From a virus: DNA of 20,120 nt. Positions 5,178 through 20,120 of this stretch are shown here, in pieces. The notes under the pieces were generated by a model. That model saw nothing but the letters and a program-made list of their open reading frames with translations, was not told the origin of the DNA and searched no databases. Both the position numbers and the translations under genes were made by a program. Position 1 is the first letter of the stretch; every line of letters starts with the position of its first letter. The stretch lies in IMG/VR virus record IMGVR_UViG_3300037189_002062, positions 1-20,120 of that record. The stretch is one strand, 5' to 3'.

Positions 5178-5611
5178 TTGATTATGTTATTTACACTAGC
5201 CTAGGAGAAATTACTCAGGTAGGAACTTGTCAAGATGAAACTTATGATTTATTGCCTATAAACCCTCAAGACTTTGTTCTTAAAGGTAAAGCAGTTTTAG
5301 GAGAACAATGGGTAGTTAATGGTGAAGTTGTTGATTTACCGCCAAAACCTTCTAATGAATACATTTTTGATTATTCTACTGGGCAATGGGTGATTGATAC
5401 CAAAGCATTAGAAACAGCTATTATTTTAAAAAGAGATAGATTATTGCTTGATTCAGATTGGACTCAATTACCAGATGTACCATTGACTCCAGACCAAAAA
5501 GAGCAATGGAGAGTGTATCGTCAGGAACTAAGGGATATTACTCAGCAACCTGGATACCCAACAAATGTAGTATTTCCTGTTGCTCCTTCTACTGAATTAG
5601 GTATAATCTAA
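5174..5611 (+). CDS. Tail assembly chaperone-like protein (Phage_tail_APC type)
   Basis: A 145-residue protein starting inside the tip gene's stop (ATGA, 5174-5177). The C-terminal half has the hallmark order RDRLLLDSDWTQLPDVPL, then EQWRVYRQELRDITQQPGYP (about residues 86-128), which is the conserved core of the Phage_tail_APC family found beside tail fibre genes. The N-terminal half (VIYTSLGEITQVGTCQD) is a small beta domain seen in similar proteins. These proteins are thought to assist fibre or tail assembly, or to be part of the fibre attachment; the function of this copy is inferred from family and position. The likely promoter for the following fibre genes overlaps its last codons. Confidence 0.8.
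   Translation: MIDYVIYTSLGEITQVGTCQDETYDLLPINPQDFVLKGKAVLGEQWVVNGEVVDLPPKPSNEYIFDYSTGQWVIDTKALETAIILKRDRLLLDSDWTQLPDVPLTPDQKEQWRVYRQELRDITQQPGYPTNVVFPVAPSTELGII
5580..5607 (+). promoter_or_regulatory. Candidate sigma70-type promoter for the fibre cassette
   Basis: TTGCTC (5580-5585), a 16-base spacer and a perfect TATAAT (5602-5607) lie at the end of the chaperone gene, about 70 bases before the next start. This is one of the few intergenic gaps in the late region, which supports a separate promoter. A chance match in AT-rich DNA is possible. Confidence 0.35.
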
Positions 5612-5679
5612 AAAAAGATAAAATACGATCCGTAGGTGAGTGGAGTGCCATTCCCTATTAACCAAGAATTGGAGAGATC

Positions 5680-6165
5680 ATGGCAGTCTTTAACAAAAAT
5701 ACCTTAACTCAGGTATCAGGTTTTGACAATCAAATTATTGCTGGCGAACTTGTCTGGCAACAAAAAACCTTTTGGAATCTAGCACTTAACGCTGATGACG
5801 GCACTCCGCTAGATTTATCTACTGCCACGATTGAAGCGGAAATTATCCGCAGAACTTTGACCAATGTTCGTGATAGCCGTTATGGTTTAGCGTTTGACAT
5901 TGGTAATTATGACCCTACCCCAGACCCTATTAATCTGACTATTACAAATGTAATAGGAGCAAGCGGTTCTTTTACCCTTGTAATAGATAGTGATGTTTGG
6001 GGTTTAATTGAAGGTCAAGTAGGGCTAGATATTGCTAATATAAATGGAGTTGGCTTTTCTGGGCGTATTAAAATTAGTTTCCCAGCTAATGGTTCGACAC
6101 CAGCGAATGACTTGATTATTTTCTTGTTATTCTTAGTTCGTTCTGATGCAATCGTAAATAATTAA
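5680..6165 (+). CDS. Putative fibre base / upper-baseplate-like structural protein
   Basis: A 161-residue protein with GGAGAG (5671-5676) before its ATG. The pattern FWNLALNADDGTPLDLSTATIEAEIIR (residues about 31-57), followed by beta strands and TLVIDSDVW, is like the immunoglobulin-like N-terminal domains (BppU-N style) that start many phage fibre or upper-baseplate proteins. It lies directly before the large collagen-like fibre gene, so a role as adaptor between tail and fibre is plausible. The family assignment is a guess from sequence style. No signal peptide or membrane segment is seen. Confidence 0.55.
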   Translation: MAVFNKNTLTQVSGFDNQIIAGELVWQQKTFWNLALNADDGTPLDLSTATIEAEIIRRTLTNVRDSRYGLAFDIGNYDPTPDPINLTITNVIGASGSFTLVIDSDVWGLIEGQVGLDIANINGVGFSGRIKISFPANGSTPANDLIIFLLFLVRSDAIVNN

Positions 6166-6174
6166 GGAATTGTC

Positions 6175-9100
6175 ATGGCAGAACTAATAGTTACTAATGC
6201 TAGTGGCGATACAGTTAATGTTGATGTAGCTGTAGGCAATCAAATTACTTTAACAGTAGATAAGGGTAACTACGGACCATCAGGTTTTAGCGGTACATCT
6301 GGCTATAGTGGCTACTCTGGTTTCAGCGGTAAGTCTGGTTACTCTGGCTTTAGTGGTCAATCAGGCTATAGCGGTTTTTCGGGACAATCTGGTTATTCAG
6401 GTACAAGTGGATTCTCAGGAAGCGGTATAAGCGGTTATAGTGGCTTTTCAGGCTATTCTGGAGAATCAATACAAGGCGAAAGCGGATTTTCTGGTTATTC
6501 AGGGTTTTCTGGAGAATCAGGCTATTCTGGTCAAGACGGACAAAGTGGTTTCAGTGGTGAATCTGGTTTTTCAGGTGAATCAGGCATAAGTGGCTACAGC
6601 GGGTTCTCAGGCTATAGCGGTCAGCAAGGCACATCAATTAATTTAAAAGGAACAGTTCCTACTGTTGGTGATTTACCAACAATAGGCAACCTACCAAATG
6701 ATGCTTATATTGTTGAAGCTGATGGAGATTTATATGTATGGGATGGGCTTGCTTGGAATAATGTAGGGCAAATAGTTGGACCATCTGGGCAAAGCGGTAT
6801 TTCAGGTTTTTCTGGATATAGTGGCGAATCAGGATTTAGCGGATTTTCAGGTGATAGTGGTATATCTGGATTTTCTGGTGATTCAGGAATATCTGGGTTT
6901 AGTGGTGATTCAGGAATAAGCGGTTGGTCAGGCTATAGCGGAGATAGTGGCATAAGCGGATTTTCTGGAGAATCTGGAACTTCTGGATATTCAGGACAAG
7001 ATGGACAATCGGGCTACTCAGGATATTCTGGCGATTCAGGCATAAGCGGATTTTCTGGTCAAGATGGACAAAGCGGTTACTCAGGATATTCAGGCATAGG
7101 TTTTTATTGGCAAGGCAGTTGGGTAATTGAAGTTGCTTATATTCAAAATTCAATAGTTGATTATGCAAATCAAACTTGGATTGCATTAGCATCTATATCA
7201 CCTTTTGATAATCCACCAACCACAAATGCAAATTGGGCTTTATTTGTTCCACAAGGGCAATCAGGTTTTAGTGGTTATTCTGGACAAGATGGTGCATCTG
7301 GTTTTTCTGGTGAATCTGGAACTTCTGGATTTAGCGGACAAGATGGTTTAAGCGGTTATTCAGGATTCAGTGGTTACTCAGGAATAGATGGCGATGGCAA
7401 AAGCGGAGATTCTGGTTTTTCTGGGTTCAGCGGATACTCTGGTTACAGCGGTCAAGATGGAATAAGCGGTGATTCAGGATATAGCGGATTCTCTGGTCAA
7501 GATGGATTATCTGGATACTCTGGGTTTTCTGGTGAATCAGGCACAAGCGGATACTCAGGCATTGATGGCACATCAGGTTACTCTGGAGAATCAGGCGCAT
7601 CAGGCATTAGCGGTTACAGCGGATTCTCTGGTCAAGATGGTTTATCAGGCTATTCTGGAGAATCAGGTACAAGTGGATATTCAGGTGAATCTGGAACCTC
7701 AGGATTTAGCGGTCAAGACGGATCATCTGGTATCTCTGGATGGTCTGGCTATTCGGGCATCAATGGACTAAGCGGTTATTCTGGACAAAATGGTTTATCG
7801 GGAATTTCAGGCTTTAGCGGAATTTCTGGTTACTCTGGCGCATCTGGAATTTCAGGTTACTCTGGTGCAGTAGGTCAATCTGGTTACAGCGGAATTTCTG
7901 GATACTCTGGTTATAGCGGTATCTCAGGATTTTCTGGACTACAAGGTGCATCATCTAGTTTATTTTTATATCAAGCACAAACAACTGCAACAAGTGGTCA
8001 GCCTACTAATGGGCATGTTCTTTGGAATAATGGAACACAAATAAATGCAACACAAATTAATATTAGCCATTTAACTGAAGATAATATTGATATTGATGTG
8101 TTTTTAGCATTGTTAAAACCTACAGAAACTTTTATTTTGCAAGATAGAAATGTAAGTGCAAATTATCAAACTTGGTTAATAACAGGCAATACAACAAATA
8201 TAAATCCAAATACTGCTAATAGTTATTGGACTGTACCAGTAAGCCTTGTTTCATCAGGTGGAACAGGAACAACTGATTTTGCAAATAATCACCAATTATT
8301 TTTTGCAGTAACAAAAGGTGTAAGTGGTACATCTGGCTACTCTGGCTTCTCTGGTTTCAGCGGCATTGGTACATCGGGCTACTCAGGGTTTAGCGGTATA
8401 TCAGGATATTCAGGGGCAAGCGGCATATCTGGTTACTCAGGATTTAGCGGTTCAGGAGTATCTGGTTACTCTGGATTTTCTGGCATCAATGGCGCATCGG
8501 GAATCAGCGGTTTCTCTGGTGCAAATGGAACATCAGGATTCTCAGGCTATAGCGGTTCAGGTGTAAGCGGTTGGTCAGGATTTAGCGGAGCAAGCGGTAT
8601 TTCTGGTTATAGCGGTTACAGCGGAGCCAATGGTGCAAGCGGTACATCAGGATATTCAGGATATTCAGGAAGTGGCGTAAGTGGCTATTCTGGCTATTCT
8701 GGCTATTCTGGATATTCAGGCTCTGGCGTATCTGGATATAGCGGATATAGCGGATTAGGACTTTCTGGTTACAGTGGATATTCTGGTTATTCTGGTTATA
8801 GTGGTGCTCAAGGAACCGCTGGATATTTAAGAACTAGCTTTACAGCCACTGCGGGACAAACCACTTTTTCAGTAACTTATACTGTAGGTTATATACAAAT
8901 TTATGTTAATGGAGTGTTACTTAATGCTGCGGATTACACAGCAACTAATGGAACTTCTTTTGTTTTAAATACCGCAGCATCACTTAACGCTATTGTAGAA
9001 GCAATTACTTATAATATTGGTAGTGTTGTTGGTATTTCTGGTTATAGTGGAATATCTGGTTATAGCGGAATATCTGGCTACAGTGGCTCTGGTGTATCTG

Positions 9101-9636
9101 GTTACAGTGGTTCTGGCATATCTGGCTTTAGTGGCATATCTGGCTTTAGTGGTTATTCTGGTTATAGTGGTGCGCTTAGTACTAGCGCAAACAATACATG
9201 GACAGGCACTCAAACATTTAACGGAACCACAAGTGTTTTAGCAGAAGTATTATTAAACGCTGCTGAAACAACAGTTGTATCAGCAATCGCAGCAACTGGC
9301 ACAATTGCTTATTACCCATCTACTCAATCAGTTCTTTACTATACAAGCAATGCTTCCGCTAACTGGACAGTAAATCTTACATTTTCTAGTGGTGTAACAT
9401 TAAATACCGCTATGAGTATAGGACAAACCTTAACTGTGGCTTTTTTAGTAACTCAAGGAACTACAGCATATTACAATTCTGCTGTTCAAGTAGATGGTTC
9501 TGCTGTTACTCCTAAATGGCAAGGCGGTGCTCCTACATCAGGAAATGTAAGTGGTATTGATGTTTATACTTATACCATTATTAAAACTGCATCAGCTACA
9601 TTTACTGTTTTAGCTTCTCAAACTCAATTTAAATAA
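6175..9636 (+). CDS. Large tail fibre protein with collagen-like Gly-X-Ser repeats
   Basis: A 1153-residue protein; AAGGAA sits before ATG 6175. Residues 1-33 are a short beta head. The rest alternates collagen-like Gly-X-Y triplets, almost all with Ser in the Y place (GYSGFSGQS, GQDGQSG), with globular inserts at about 152-201 (ADGDLYVWDGLAWNNVG), 307-359 (WQGSWVIEVAYIQNSIVDY, like a small carbohydrate-binding module), 590-714, 880-952 (QIYVNGVLLNAADYTATNGT) and a C-terminal head 1000-1153 (IAYYPSTQSVLYYTSNASANW to FTVLASQTQFK). The triplet total is roughly 660 residues, about 220 triplets (estimate). The C-terminal head and the 880-952 module are of kinds I recall from aquatic phage fibres. 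A trimeric triple-helical shaft with receptor-binding knobs is the expected structure. Serine codons vary from repeat to repeat. Confidence 0.85.
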   Translation: MAELIVTNASGDTVNVDVAVGNQITLTVDKGNYGPSGFSGTSGYSGYSGFSGKSGYSGFSGQSGYSGFSGQSGYSGTSGFSGSGISGYSGFSGYSGESIQGESGFSGYSGFSGESGYSGQDGQSGFSGESGFSGESGISGYSGFSGYSGQQGTSINLKGTVPTVGDLPTIGNLPNDAYIVEADGDLYVWDGLAWNNVGQIVGPSGQSGISGFSGYSGESGFSGFSGDSGISGFSGDSGISGFSGDSGISGWSGYSGDSGISGFSGESGTSGYSGQDGQSGYSGYSGDSGISGFSGQDGQSGYSGYSGIGFYWQGSWVIEVAYIQNSIVDYANQTWIALASISPFDNPPTTNANWALFVPQGQSGFSGYSGQDGASGFSGESGTSGFSGQDGLSGYSGFSGYSGIDGDGKSGDSGFSGFSGYSGYSGQDGISGDSGYSGFSGQDGLSGYSGFSGESGTSGYSGIDGTSGYSGESGASGISGYSGFSGQDGLSGYSGESGTSGYSGESGTSGFSGQDGSSGISGWSGYSGINGLSGYSGQNGLSGISGFSGISGYSGASGISGYSGAVGQSGYSGISGYSGYSGISGFSGLQGASSSLFLYQAQTTATSGQPTNGHVLWNNGTQINATQINISHLTEDNIDIDVFLALLKPTETFILQDRNVSANYQTWLITGNTTNINPNTANSYWTVPVSLVSSGGTGTTDFANNHQLFFAVTKGVSGTSGYSGFSGFSGIGTSGYSGFSGISGYSGASGISGYSGFSGSGVSGYSGFSGINGASGISGFSGANGTSGFSGYSGSGVSGWSGFSGASGISGYSGYSGANGASGTSGYSGYSGSGVSGYSGYSGYSGYSGSGVSGYSGYSGLGLSGYSGYSGYSGYSGAQGTAGYLRTSFTATAGQTTFSVTYTVGYIQIYVNGVLLNAADYTATNGTSFVLNTAASLNAIVEAITYNIGSVVGISGYSGISGYSGISGYSGSGVSGYSGSGISGFSGISGFSGYSGYSGALSTSANNTWTGTQTFNGTTSVLAEVLLNAAETTVVSAIAATGTIAYYPSTQSVLYYTSNASANWTVNLTFSSGVTLNTAMSIGQTLTVAFLVTQGTTAYYNSAVQVDGSAVTPKWQGGAPTSGNVSGIDVYTYTIIKTASATFTVLASQTQFK
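6277..9174 (+). repeat. Coding repeats: Gly-X-Ser (GFSG/GYSG) triplet blocks
   Basis: Degenerate 9-base units encode Gly-(Tyr/Phe/Ile/Glu/Thr)-Ser, sometimes Gly-Gln-Asp. Five blocks are separated by non-repeat globular modules (about 6628-6777, 7093-7251, 7942-8316 and 8812-9030). The DNA repeat is imperfect because Gly and Ser codons are mixed (TCT, TCA, AGC, AGT, a few TCG). This is protein-level repetition, not a satellite or CRISPR array. Confidence 0.85.
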
Positions 9637-18825: not shown

Positions 18826-19016
18826 GTATTGCTCCTAAAAATTTTTCCAAAGTCTATAAAAAGATTATTTAAATGGCTACTAGCCACAGTTTTTGGATTA
18901 AAACCACAAGCGTATTTCAGCGTATCAATTTGATCCTTTGATAAGCTCATACCGCCTTCTAACTCCATAAATATCCAATGTAAATCTTGCTCAAGTTTTT
19001 CCATATCATTGCTCAT
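18822..19016 (-). CDS. Small first gene of the leftward early operon, unknown function
   Basis: A 64-residue protein with TAGGAGA 5 bases before the ATG (19016-19014). The sequence is acidic at the start (SNDMEKLEQDLHWIFMELEG) and helical throughout (LSKDQIDTLKYACGF, HLNNLFIDFGKIF). No family is recognised. Being the first gene read from the divergent control region and overlapping the SSB-like gene by ATGA, it is likely to be made very early after infection. Confidence 0.65.
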   Translation of the reverse strand: MSNDMEKLEQDLHWIFMELEGGMSLSKDQIDTLKYACGFNPKTVASSHLNNLFIDFGKIFRSNT

Positions 19017-19033
19017 AATTTCTCCTATTTCTC

Positions 19034-19047
19034 ACGGACAATTCCGT
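19034..19047. promoter_or_regulatory. Palindromic candidate operator ACGGA-CAAT-TCCGT
   Basis: A perfect 5-4-5 inverted repeat in the divergent control region, 18 bases upstream of the leftward start codon and close to the expected 5' end of that transcript. It differs in sequence from the 16-bp palindrome at 19078. It may be a regulator site or an mRNA leader hairpin. Confidence 0.35.
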
Positions 19048-19056
19048 AATACAGAA

Positions 19057-19072
19057 CTTAACATACCTTAAT
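19057..19072. promoter_or_regulatory. Paired CTTAA half-sites
   Basis: CTTAA (19057-19061) and CTTAAT (19067-19072) are direct half-sites 10 bp apart (one helical turn), overlapping the likely -10 zone of the leftward promoter. The same half-site is palindromic at 17095-17110 and occurs again at 19111 within the rightward -10. The repetition suggests a common regulator. Confidence 0.3.
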
Positions 19073-19077
19073 CAGTT

Positions 19078-19117
19078 ATGCAAGCCCTTGCATTTATAAA
19101 GGTAAAAGCGTTAAGAT
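19078..19117 (+). promoter_or_regulatory. Palindromic operator and rightward promoter of the Cro-like gene
   Basis: The 16-bp perfect palindrome ATGCAAGCCCTTGCAT spans 19078-19093. Its right arm ends in TTGCAT (19088-19093), a good -35; 18 bases on is TAAGAT (19112-19117) as -10. The expected start of transcription falls at about 19124, the A of the ATG. The left arm gives a mirror-image TTGCAT on the minus strand, 17 bases from TAAGTT (19060-19055), a weaker leftward promoter. A repressor bound here would block both. Confidence 0.5.
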
Positions 19118-19123
19118 TGCCTA

Positions 19124-19378
19124 ATGGACAATAAAATAAACTTTACCGATAGCCAAATTATTGACCTTCTGGGGGGCTGCACAAAAGTAGCAAAGTTATG
19201 TGACATCAGCGTTCCAGCGGTTTCTATGTGGCGTAAAAAGGGCATACCTCATGCTCAATATGTATTTTTGGGGGCAACCCTAGAAATTGCTAGTCATGGA
19301 TTAATTACTAGAAAAGACCTATTGCCTAAGACTTGGCATATCGTTTTCCCTGAGTTGATACCCAAACACGAAAAATAG
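19124..19378 (+). CDS. Cro/YdaS-like helix-turn-helix regulator
   Basis: An 84-residue protein. Residues 12-42 (IIDLLGGCTKVAKLCDISVP, AVSMWRKKGIP) make a helix-turn-helix of the Cro/YdaS type: TKVAKLCDI is the first helix, SVPAVSMWRKKG the recognition helix, and W36-R37-K38-K39 the DNA contact region. The rest (LITRKDLLPKTWHIVFPEL) is typical of phage Cro-like proteins. No ribosome site precedes ATG 19124, and the promoter upstream predicts transcription starting at the ATG, so translation may be leaderless like lambda cI from PRM. As the first rightward gene ahead of replication genes it occupies the place of cro. No cleavable CI-like C-terminal domain is present. Confidence 0.8.
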   Translation: MDNKINFTDSQIIDLLGGCTKVAKLCDISVPAVSMWRKKGIPHAQYVFLGATLEIASHGLITRKDLLPKTWHIVFPELIPKHEK

Positions 19379-19387
19379 ATATATACT
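19355..19387 (+). promoter_or_regulatory. Candidate promoter for the structured block
   Basis: TTGATA (19355-19360) and TATATACT (19380-19387) at the end of the regulator gene resemble -35 and -10 elements, though the spacing (19 to TATATA, 21 to TATACT) is long. The expected RNA start, about 19392-19394, coincides with the first base of the CCTTAGAT stem at 19394. The same TATATACT occurs in the minus-strand promoter near 17090. Confidence 0.35.
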
Positions 19388-19390
19388 CAG

Positions 19391-19590
19391 TTCCCTTAGA
19401 TTGGCGGCTCTACCGACATCGTGGCGATCTAAGGTGATAGCGTTACCAGGGGGTTAGAGGATGAAACAGCGCAATACGAATGGTGAAGCCAGAGTTCGTT
19501 CCTCTCAAGTCTGGCGGGTTATGCGAAACCGATTGGTAAAGCGTATGAAAGCAACCTAGGTAGGGCTAGGTTTGCTCTCCGAAAGGTAAA
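19391..19590 (+). ncRNA. Candidate structured RNA (class unknown)
   Basis: I count 100 G+C in the 200 bases 19391-19590 (50%), well above the neighbouring genes. Perfect or nearly perfect stems are CCTTAGAT/ATCTAAGG (19394-19401/19427-19434), GCCAGA/TCTGGC (19488-19493/19510-19515) and AGCAACCTA/TAGGTTTGCT (19550-19558/19567-19576, one bulged base), followed by CC-GAAA-GG (19579-19586), a GNRA-type tetraloop. A promoter-like sequence ends where the first stem begins. No Rfam class is recognised with confidence; an omega/HEARO-like RNA or a group II-type remnant were considered without proof. A 32-residue frame (19461-19559) lies within it, so a coding reading is also possible. Confidence 0.45.
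19461..19559 (+). CDS. Possible 32-residue basic micropeptide
   Basis: ATG 19461 is preceded by AGGGGGTTAGAGG, which matches the GGGGG ribosome-site form used by several genes in this phage. The peptide MKQRNTNGEARVRSSQVWRV then MRNRLVKRMKAT has ten Lys/Arg and one Glu, as in a nucleic-acid-binding peptide. The frame coincides with the stems of the candidate structured RNA, so chance is a serious alternative. No homologue is recognised. Confidence 0.3.
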   Translation: MKQRNTNGEARVRSSQVWRVMRNRLVKRMKAT

Positions 19591-19622
19591 GATTAATTAA
19601 GTAATAGTAATTAATATAAGAT

Positions 19623-19895
19623 ATGACTATGAACTATTTTATTGCCGCAGTCCTTCTTTACTATTTCAACGCTAATACTTTTTGGTGGGTAGGATTTGTA
19701 AGTTTAATATTTATGGAAATTGGGTTGTTAGGCTATCGTGCATACAAAGAAGCAACTAAAGAACCCATTTATGAATCAACTTTAAAAGACATTGTTAAGC
19801 TAGACGGATCGCCTTACACTTATGAAGATTTACAAAATATTTGGAATCATGGCTATCAAAACGGATATAACAACGCACATTTGACTAAACAATGA
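19623..19895 (+). CDS. Small membrane protein of unknown function
   Basis: A 90-residue protein. Residues about 4-15 (NYFIAAVLLYYF) and 20-37 (FWWVGFVSLIFMEIGLLG) are hydrophobic and could form one long or two short membrane segments; the rest (YRAYKEATKEPIYESTLKDI, YTYEDLQNIWNHGYQNGYNN) is soluble. No strong ribosome site is seen before ATG 19623; ATG 19629 is an alternative start. No family recognised. It lies in the rightward early operon and overlaps the next gene by ATGA (19892-19895), so it is co-translated with it. Confidence 0.6.
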   Translation: MTMNYFIAAVLLYYFNANTFWWVGFVSLIFMEIGLLGYRAYKEATKEPIYESTLKDIVKLDGSPYTYEDLQNIWNHGYQNGYNNAHLTKQ

Positions 19896-20120
19896 AAATT
19901 ACAGTTAAAAAAATCAAAGAAAACAAAGATGGTTCAGCCGATGTTGAAGTAAGCTATGACAAAGCTGGGTTACAGTTTTTAGTGCAACAAGGGGTTATTT
20001 GCACTTTTGTAGAGGCACTTGTACAAGAGAAAACAGGGGAGAAATACAATGTTTCAGACATTTTGGGAACTTTACCCAAGAAAAGTAGCAAAAAGGGCAG
20101 CAGAAAAGGCTTGGAACAAA
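19892..20120 (+). CDS. Early protein of unknown function, 3' end outside window
   Basis: The frame starts in the ATGA overlap and is open to the window edge (76 codons visible). The protein begins MKITVKKIKENKDGSADVEV, then SYDKAGLQFLVQQGVICTFV and KTGEKYNVSDILGTLPKKSS. The first 50 residues resemble small beta-alpha phage early proteins, but no family is recognised. From 20049 another start opens in a different frame and carries a known replication motif, so this gene probably ends soon after the window. Confidence 0.6.
   Translation, partial: MKITVKKIKENKDGSADVEVSYDKAGLQFLVQQGVICTFVEALVQEKTGEKYNVSDILGTLPKKSSKKGSRKGLEQ
20049..20120 (+). CDS. Replication initiator-like protein, N-terminal 24 residues (partial)
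   Basis: ATG 20049 follows GGGGAG (20036-20041), and the 24 visible codons contain FWELYPRKVAKRAAEKAW. This FW..YP.K..K..A..AW motif is a known signature in phage replication proteins of the lambda O / DnaT-like group and in related primosome proteins. It overlaps the previous frame by at least 72 bases. Location at the right end of the rightward early operon, after a Cro-like gene, agrees with a replication role. Only the start is visible, so the full domain set is unknown. Confidence 0.7.
   Translation, partial: MFQTFWELYPRKVAKRAAEKAWNK

What the first reader, a model, noticed from the sequence alone, without database searches (positions are those of the whole stretch)
19376..19600. GC-rich, stem-rich 200-nt block downstream of the Cro-like gene: possible new phage RNA
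A 50% GC block interrupts AT-rich DNA right after the regulator gene. It has three separated stems, a GAAA tetraloop and a promoter-like sequence whose predicted start matches the first stem. No tRNA or recognised riboswitch fits. It could be a regulatory RNA for the lysis/replication switch, a guide-type RNA, or an intron remnant.
Basis: partly seen in the sequence, partly recalled or inferred. Interest (0 to 1): 0.65.

Follow-up and report, generated by a model that had tools for sequence, protein, structure and literature searches.

The report
Phage RNA likely starting DNA replication
This stretch encodes a knotted RNA of about 200 bases, from a catalogued family with no known job, which in these phages seems to replace the protein half and DNA repeats that normally mark where viral DNA copying begins, probably by pairing with the DNA at its own end.

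Summary
The block is a real structured RNA, but not an unrecognised one: 19394-19519 matches Rfam RF02932 "Betaproteobacteria-1 RNA" (70.8 bits, cut-off 49.4), a family for which I found no known function.

New here: (1) 101 distinct homologues from phages and prophages show that Rfam models only part of it. The RNA runs to about 19591 and is pseudoknotted, with compensatory changes in every helix except weakly supported P5. (2) A 5-11 nt sequence in the P4 loop (R1) recurs as a direct repeat at the RNA's 3' end (R2). The two change together (z about 20), have no other enriched complement in cis, and are purine-rich; AT-rich DNA follows R2. (3) Among 66 phage loci sharing the Cro-like gene, 28/28 with the RNA lack the DUF1376 half of the replication initiator and keep only its C-terminal half. 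Of 38 without the RNA, 37 have DUF1376, and those 37 all carry short tandem iteron-like repeats that RNA-bearing loci lack.

Best explanation: an RNA-specified replication origin working like ColE1 RNA II, with R1 pairing to the template strand at R2 to seed an R-loop. The swap is shown; R-loop priming is inferred. Precedents: ColE1, T4, mycobacteriophage RNA origins.

The parts
19355..19387 (+). Candidate promoter in the end of the cro-like gene (TTGATA 19355-19360, TATACT 19382-19387); below consensus in this copy
   Evidence: Sequence; one search finds no consensus promoter here; better promoters at the same place in relatives
19394..19591 (+). Whole conserved RNA, P1 to end of R2 (Rfam RF02932 covers 19394-19519 only)
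   Evidence: (RF02932)
19394..19434 (+). Hairpin P1 (19394-19403 / 19425-19434); its loop holds the 5' arm of D (UGG 19422-19424)
19422..19448 (+). Pseudoknot helix D: 19422-19424 with 19446-19448
   Evidence: 96.8% of cells paired, 3 of 4 pairs with changes on both sides
19440..19472 (+). Helix C: GCGUU 19440-19444 with AGCGC 19468-19472
   Evidence: 21 of 34 arm combinations fully paired vs 1.5 shuffled
19457..19504 (+). Pseudoknot helix A: GAGGA 19457-19461 with UCCUC 19500-19504
   Evidence: 22 of 38 vs 2.1 shuffled
19476..19499 (+). Helix B: ACGAA 19476-19480 with UUCGU 19495-19499
   Evidence: 21 of 30 vs 4.3 shuffled
19488..19515 (+). Helix P3: GCCAGA 19488-19493 with UCUGGC 19510-19515, crossing A and B
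19521..19546 (+). Helix P4: AUGCG 19521-19525 with CGUAU 19542-19546; its loop contains R1
   Evidence: 81.5% of cells paired, all 4 pairs with changes on both sides
19529..19541 (+). R1: CCGAUUGGUAAAG in the P4 loop (shared core GGUAAAG 19535-19541)
   Evidence: concerted with R2
19551..19575 (+). Hairpin P5 (GCAACCUAG / CUAGGUUUGC)
   Evidence: Sequence; weak in the pair count because of alignment
19579..19591 (+). R2: CCGAAAGGUAAAG, direct repeat of R1 (core 19585-19591), at the 3' limit of conservation
19592..19660 (.). AT-rich stretch right after R2 (26% GC at 19600-19660), candidate DNA unwinding element
19124..19378 (+). Cro-like regulator (P22_Cro / YdaS-like)
19623..19895 (+). Small ORF of unknown function downstream of the RNA, no PHROG match
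20049..20120 (+). Start of the YPRK protein (MFQTFWELYPRKVAKRAAEKAWNK...), the C-terminal half of a replication initiator; runs off the window
   Evidence: Sequence; relative P0001 matches phrog_270 and phrog_9327 over their C-terminal parts

Best explanation
The block encodes a pseudoknotted phage RNA (Rfam RF02932, longer than modelled) that specifies the phage's replication origin in place of the DNA-recognising half of a protein initiator. Proposed sequence of events: the RNA is transcribed rightward after cro and folds into a knotted core that presents R1 in the P4 loop. When RNA polymerase has passed R2, R1, which has the same sequence as R2, pairs with the template strand there and seeds a persistent R-loop next to AT-rich DNA. 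The RNA then primes leading-strand synthesis, and/or the displaced strand receives the host helicase with the help of the stand-alone C-terminal half of the initiator (YPRK protein). Shown by sequence: the fold, the concerted R1/R2 repeat, the AT-rich flank, and the absence of DUF1376 and of iteron-like repeats wherever the RNA is present in this phage group. Inferred: R-loop formation, priming, helicase recruitment.
For: Mutual exclusion with the DUF1376 initiator half: 28/28 vs 1/38, p 8e-18 uncorrected for relatedness. RNA-bearing loci keep the C-terminal half: phrog_9327 holds both halves. Short tandem repeats in all 37 DUF1376 loci and in no RNA-bearing locus. The state changes 7 times on the best cro tree, 3 with strong support, always opposite to the initiator. 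R1 = R2 concerted in 101 RNAs and 40 diverse RNAs, with no other enriched complement in cis. Shared core 73% purine vs 51%. DNA after R2 is more AT-rich than other noncoding DNA in 73 of 84 contigs. GC-skew minimum within 1.5 kb of the RNA in 9 of 15 phage contigs. Replication genes nearby. One copy per phage contig, 20/20. ColE1 needs an rG-dC interaction for its persistent hybrid and T4 origins use R-loops (PMC4412123); RNA-based prophage origins exist (PMC7157519).
Against: No transcript, R-loop or replication data. The window copy's promoter is weak. The swap was tested in one phage group only; other RNA-bearing phages have primase/helicase genes instead of YPRK, and 39 of 101 loci showed neither in the DNA held. 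GC skew is confounded by divergent early transcription. A 5-9 nt seed is short for an R-loop. The three well-supported independent swaps are too few for a sign test.
Confidence: 0.68

Rival explanations
1. RNA-based origin as above, but R1 and R2 serve something other than seeding an R-loop, for example two equal binding sites for a replication protein, or processing sites.
For: All module-swap evidence holds equally. Both repeats follow similar pyrimidine motifs (CUCC / CACC).
Against: Protein sites would not be expected to change sequence freely in both places while neighbouring genes stay nearly identical. The purine bias fits an RNA:DNA hybrid.
Confidence: 0.12
2. Cis-acting antitermination leader of the early operon, like HK022 put or lambda nut: the RNA binds RNA polymerase and lets it read through terminators downstream.
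For: Sits right after cro at the start of the rightward early operon; downstream genes on the same strand in 100 of 117 loci.
Against: Does not explain the R1/R2 repeat or why the RNA replaces the initiator's DUF1376 half and the iteron-like repeats.
Confidence: 0.1
3. Trans-acting small RNA (or RNA-protein particle) whose two seeds R1 and R2 pair with the same phage or host target.
For: Two equal seeds are known in some bacterial sRNAs such as RNAIII (own knowledge); several relatives carry their own promoter.
Against: No complement of the repeat is enriched in the RNA, its flanks or the held loci. The sequence varies between phages with nearly identical flanks. The initiator swap stays unexplained.
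Confidence: 0.07

Closest known systems
Rfam RF02932 Betaproteobacteria-1 RNA
   Same: Window 19394-19519 matches the full 120-position model above the cut-off; this is the same RNA.
   Different: The model lacks helices A, B, D, P4, P5 and the R1/R2 repeat. No function or phage context was found in the papers searched.
ColE1 RNA II (plasmid pre-primer)
   Same: Structured transcript; an upstream loop and the sequence near the origin are the same (two G6 tracts 236 nt apart, probe identity from memory), so the loop can pair with the template at the second site. An rG-dC interaction is essential for the persistent hybrid (PMC4412123).
   Different: No sequence or fold homology seen; the repeat is an exchangeable 5-11 nt sequence, not G6; pseudoknotted core; found in phages next to a half initiator.
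RNA-based origins of cluster A mycobacteriophage prophages (RedRock, Alma and others; PMC7157519)
   Same: A noncoding RNA is needed for replication and takes the place of a RepA initiator in related phages.
   Different: Alma and RedRock origins do not match RF02932. They serve extrachromosomal prophages beside parABS, not a lytic early replication module.
Phage T4 oriF/oriG
   Same: Promoter plus downstream unwinding element; the R-loop primes leading-strand synthesis (PMC4412123).
   Different: No conserved knotted RNA or self-matching repeat is described in the text read.
Lambda-type O protein/iteron origin
   Same: The RNA-less relatives have this type: initiator with tandem repeats inside its gene (likeness to lambda from own knowledge).
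   Different: RNA-bearing phages lack the DUF1376 half and the repeats and keep only the C-terminal half.

Membership tests
Rfam RF02932 | Score above the curated gathering cut-off over the full model | tested here: met
   70.8 vs 49.4 bits, model positions 1-120
Rfam RF02932 | The three modelled hairpins | tested here: met
   P1, C and P3 are present, with covariation
ColE1 RNA II | Loop sequence identical to the transcript sequence near the origin | tested here: met
   R1 = R2 concerted; here not G6
ColE1 RNA II | Sequence or structural homology to a known plasmid replicon RNA | tested here: not met
   No other Rfam family matched; no hit in 72,556 plasmid records with three variants
ColE1 RNA II | Persistent RNA-DNA hybrid, RNase H cut, primer for DNA polymerase I | not testable with these tools
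   Needs experiment
ColE1 RNA II | Antisense control RNA (RNA I) | tested here: inconclusive
   The consensus scan found no promoter on either strand at 18950-20120
Mycobacteriophage RNA-based origin | RNA present instead of an initiator protein in related phages | tested here: met
   28/28 vs 1/38
Mycobacteriophage RNA-based origin | Homologous RNA | tested here: not met
   Alma and RedRock origin regions have no RF02932 match
Mycobacteriophage RNA-based origin | Region sufficient for plasmid replication | not testable with these tools
   Needs replicon assay
HEARO / group II intron / other guide RNA | Match to the Rfam model | tested here: not met
   Only RF02932 is significant at 19300-19700, searched down to E 5
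HK022 put / lambda nut antiterminator | Position at the start of the early operon after cro | tested here: met
HK022 put / lambda nut antiterminator | Read-through activity on RNA polymerase | not testable with these tools
   Needs transcription assay

The most novel reading that the evidence does not exclude
A widespread class of phage replication origins in which a pseudoknotted RNA, rather than a DNA-binding initiator domain with iterons, marks the origin by carrying its own exchangeable address: a loop sequence that must equal the DNA at the RNA's 3' end. Only the C-terminal, presumably helicase-recruiting, half of the protein initiator is kept, and exchange of the address would change which phage genome the RNA acts on.
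Probability: 0.5. Interest if true: 0.88.

Novelty: new variant of a known kind. Interest (0 to 1): 0.78.

Why it matters
It offers a function, testable by a simple replicon assay, for an RNA family without one. It shows an RNA standing in for half of an initiator protein plus its DNA repeats at the same locus of related phages. It would extend RNA-specified origins from plasmids and mycobacteriophage prophages to a diverse set of mostly betaproteobacterial phages. The concerted R1/R2 repeat is a sequence signature by which other R-loop origins might be found.

Tried and rejected
Energy-based evidence for structure: ordinary. Targets of the repeat in cis (RNA, flanks, held loci): none enriched; a look through whole phage contigs covered five before a script error and showed nothing consistent. 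DnaA boxes: no enrichment. Iteron search with 17-mers: uninformative; the short-period search separated the groups. blastn of the window RNA and a close variant against named phages: none; two GC-rich variants found Acidovorax phage AP1 and, one of them, MW202545. Plasmid records: none. The U-tract before P1 in some relatives first looked like a terminator; it is more likely an arm of an extra 5' domain. A first count of the initiator swap was blurred by the shared C-terminal tail and a too strict RNA pattern and was redone with the N-terminal domain only. Type III toxin-antitoxin repeats, retrons, diversity-generating elements, CRISPR/TnpB guides, bridge RNAs and ribosome bypass were considered from memory; no partner gene of such systems recurs beside the RNA and no such Rfam family matches. 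The paper that, from memory, first described the RNA family is not held.

Full report
WHAT IS THERE. The block after the Cro-like gene is a real RNA gene. cmscan finds one family in the whole window: RF02932 'Betaproteobacteria-1 RNA' at 19394-19519 (+), 70.8 bits against a cut-off of 49.4. The window is a virus contig. No function for RF02932 was found in the papers searched. Predicted folding energy is ordinary (z +0.45), so stability alone would not have shown the RNA.

RELATIVES. A scan with the Cro-like protein gave 80 phage loci. A pattern from the RNA gave 120 viral and 68 genome stretches, many of the latter spurious. 101 distinct RNAs were parsed. In bacterial genomes the RNA is rare (4 of 251 in one family, 3 of 299 in one phylum, each count including the genome used as centre). 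All 20 long phage contigs tested carry exactly one copy. The cultured Acidovorax phage AP1 has it, unannotated, after its primase gene.

STRUCTURE. Parsing by conserved motifs shows helices that Rfam lacks. Fully paired arm combinations: A 22 of 38, B 21 of 30, C 21 of 34, against 2.1, 4.3 and 1.5 when arms are shuffled (the A and C arms were chosen by best pairing, B sits at a fixed offset). On a MAFFT alignment of 40 diverse sequences made without structure, 36 of 46 pairs show changes on both sides, and the covariation score is 0.389 against 0.163 shuffled and at most 0.164 when partners are slid. Helix D joins the P1 loop to the C loop (96.8% of cells paired), C crosses A, and A and B cross P3: a chain of pseudoknots. 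P5 is weakly supported in that count, because of the alignment. About 20 of the 101 relatives add a 110-150 nt 5' domain between promoter and P1; the window copy does not.

THE CONCERTED REPEAT. After P3 comes P4, whose loop holds R1; the conserved part of the RNA ends in R2. R1 and R2 are direct repeats whose sequence differs from phage to phage but agrees within each RNA: longest common substring 6.55 against 4.42 (sd 0.11) when R1s and R2s are shuffled among sequences; in 40 diverse RNAs 6.98 against 4.49 (sd 0.17), never reached in 1000 shuffles. In the window both read GGUAAAG (19535-19541 and 19585-19591). AP1 and MW202545 show the same feature. No complement or further copy is enriched in the RNA, its flanks or the held DNA. 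The shared core is 73% purine against 51% for the contigs. Phages with nearly identical flanks carry different repeats. The one complement that always exists is the template strand at R2 (and R1) itself.

THE MODULE SWAP. Phage loci with the same Cro-like gene fall into two kinds. Without the RNA they encode a protein of about 250-270 aa with an N-terminal DUF1376 domain, annotated in PHROGs as primosomal or O-like replication initiator. With the RNA, that protein is missing and a protein of about 145 aa beginning MFQTFWELYPRK takes its place; it matches the C-terminal part of the same initiator families (phrog_9327: DUF1376 half at 6-130, YPRK half at 174-264). Of 66 loci with enough DNA downstream, 28 have the RNA, all without DUF1376 and all with YPRK; 38 lack the RNA, 37 of them with DUF1376; the exception, L023, has another protein there that looks like an initiator by eye (p 8e-18, relatedness not corrected). 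On the cro tree the state changes 7 times, at least 3 times on well-supported branches, and the initiator always changes the opposite way (three pairs cannot reach significance in a sign test). All 37 DUF1376 loci hold short tandem repeats, mostly of period 7 such as TAACCAATAACCAAGAACCAATAACCAT (21-26 of 28 periodic matches), inside the initiator gene in those inspected. The 28 RNA-bearing loci do not (16-20; shuffles 15-19). From own knowledge, lambda carries its iterons inside the O gene in the same way. What the RNA replaces is therefore the DUF1376 (N-terminal) half of the initiator, presumably the part that recognises the origin, together with the DNA repeats.

OTHER SIGNS OF AN ORIGIN. 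The 60 nt after R2 are more AT-rich than other noncoding DNA of the same contigs (32.5 vs 39.3% GC; lower in 73 of 84). The GC-skew minimum lies within 1.5 kb of the RNA in 9 of 15 phage contigs, though divergent early transcription contributes. Of 101 RNA loci, 40 have YPRK (all on the same strand) and 22 others have primase or helicase genes in reach.

MECHANISM. ColE1 replication needs an interaction between an rG stretch of the transcript and a dC stretch of the template for its persistent hybrid, which RNase H cuts into a primer; T4 origins use a promoter, an R-loop and an unwinding element (PMC4412123). In ColE1-type origins two G6 tracts lie 236 nt apart (the identity of the two probes is from memory). 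R1/R2 has the form expected if R1 seeds such a hybrid at R2, with an exchangeable sequence instead of G6. Mycobacteriophage prophages with RNA-based origins in place of RepA are a direct precedent (PMC7157519), though their RNA does not match RF02932. Best explanation: an RNA-specified phage origin. The swap and the repeat are shown; hybrid formation, priming and helicase recruitment by the YPRK protein are inferred.

LIMITS. There are no transcript or replication data. The window copy's promoter is weak. The window ends 24 codons into the YPRK gene, so its initiator type is read from near relatives (for example L007 and L010). The swap was tested in one phage group, and the p-values ignore part of the relatedness.

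Noticed in passing
L091, L086, L089, L096, L146, L166, L172, L090, L092, L156 and others, 110-150 nt upstream of P1: About 20 of 101 relatives carry an extra 5' domain closed by a stem (for example CAGCAGA...UCUGCUG in L091) and ending in a GGGGUUUUU tract; it is absent from the window copy.
   Followed up: partly
L017, L031, L034, L044, L047 and others, about 600-970 nt after cro: RNA-less relatives have tandem NAACCAN heptamers; in the loci inspected these lie inside the DUF1376 initiator gene and look like iterons. At least three in a row in 25 of 37 loci, none in 28 RNA-bearing loci.
   Followed up: yes
L011 and L014 (HNH-like gene); L060, L061, L063, L080 (gene like a PAPS reductase): Different extra genes sit between cro and the RNA in different phages, so the spot is a hot spot for gene insertion (gene names by eye).
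   Followed up: partly
MW202545.1 (L310) 5195-6062: The RNA follows a cluster of tRNA genes, and its 3' part is annotated as overlapping hypothetical proteins, probably spurious.
   Followed up: no
L216, L229, L230, L238, L239, L265: A GC-rich subgroup in bacterial genomes has a much longer P4; one lies near a UmuC-like gene and some contexts do not look like phage early regions, possibly integrative elements (gene name by eye).
   Followed up: no
window 6175-9633: Long collagen-like SGYSGFSG repeat tail-fibre protein (PHROG tail fibre families).
   Followed up: no
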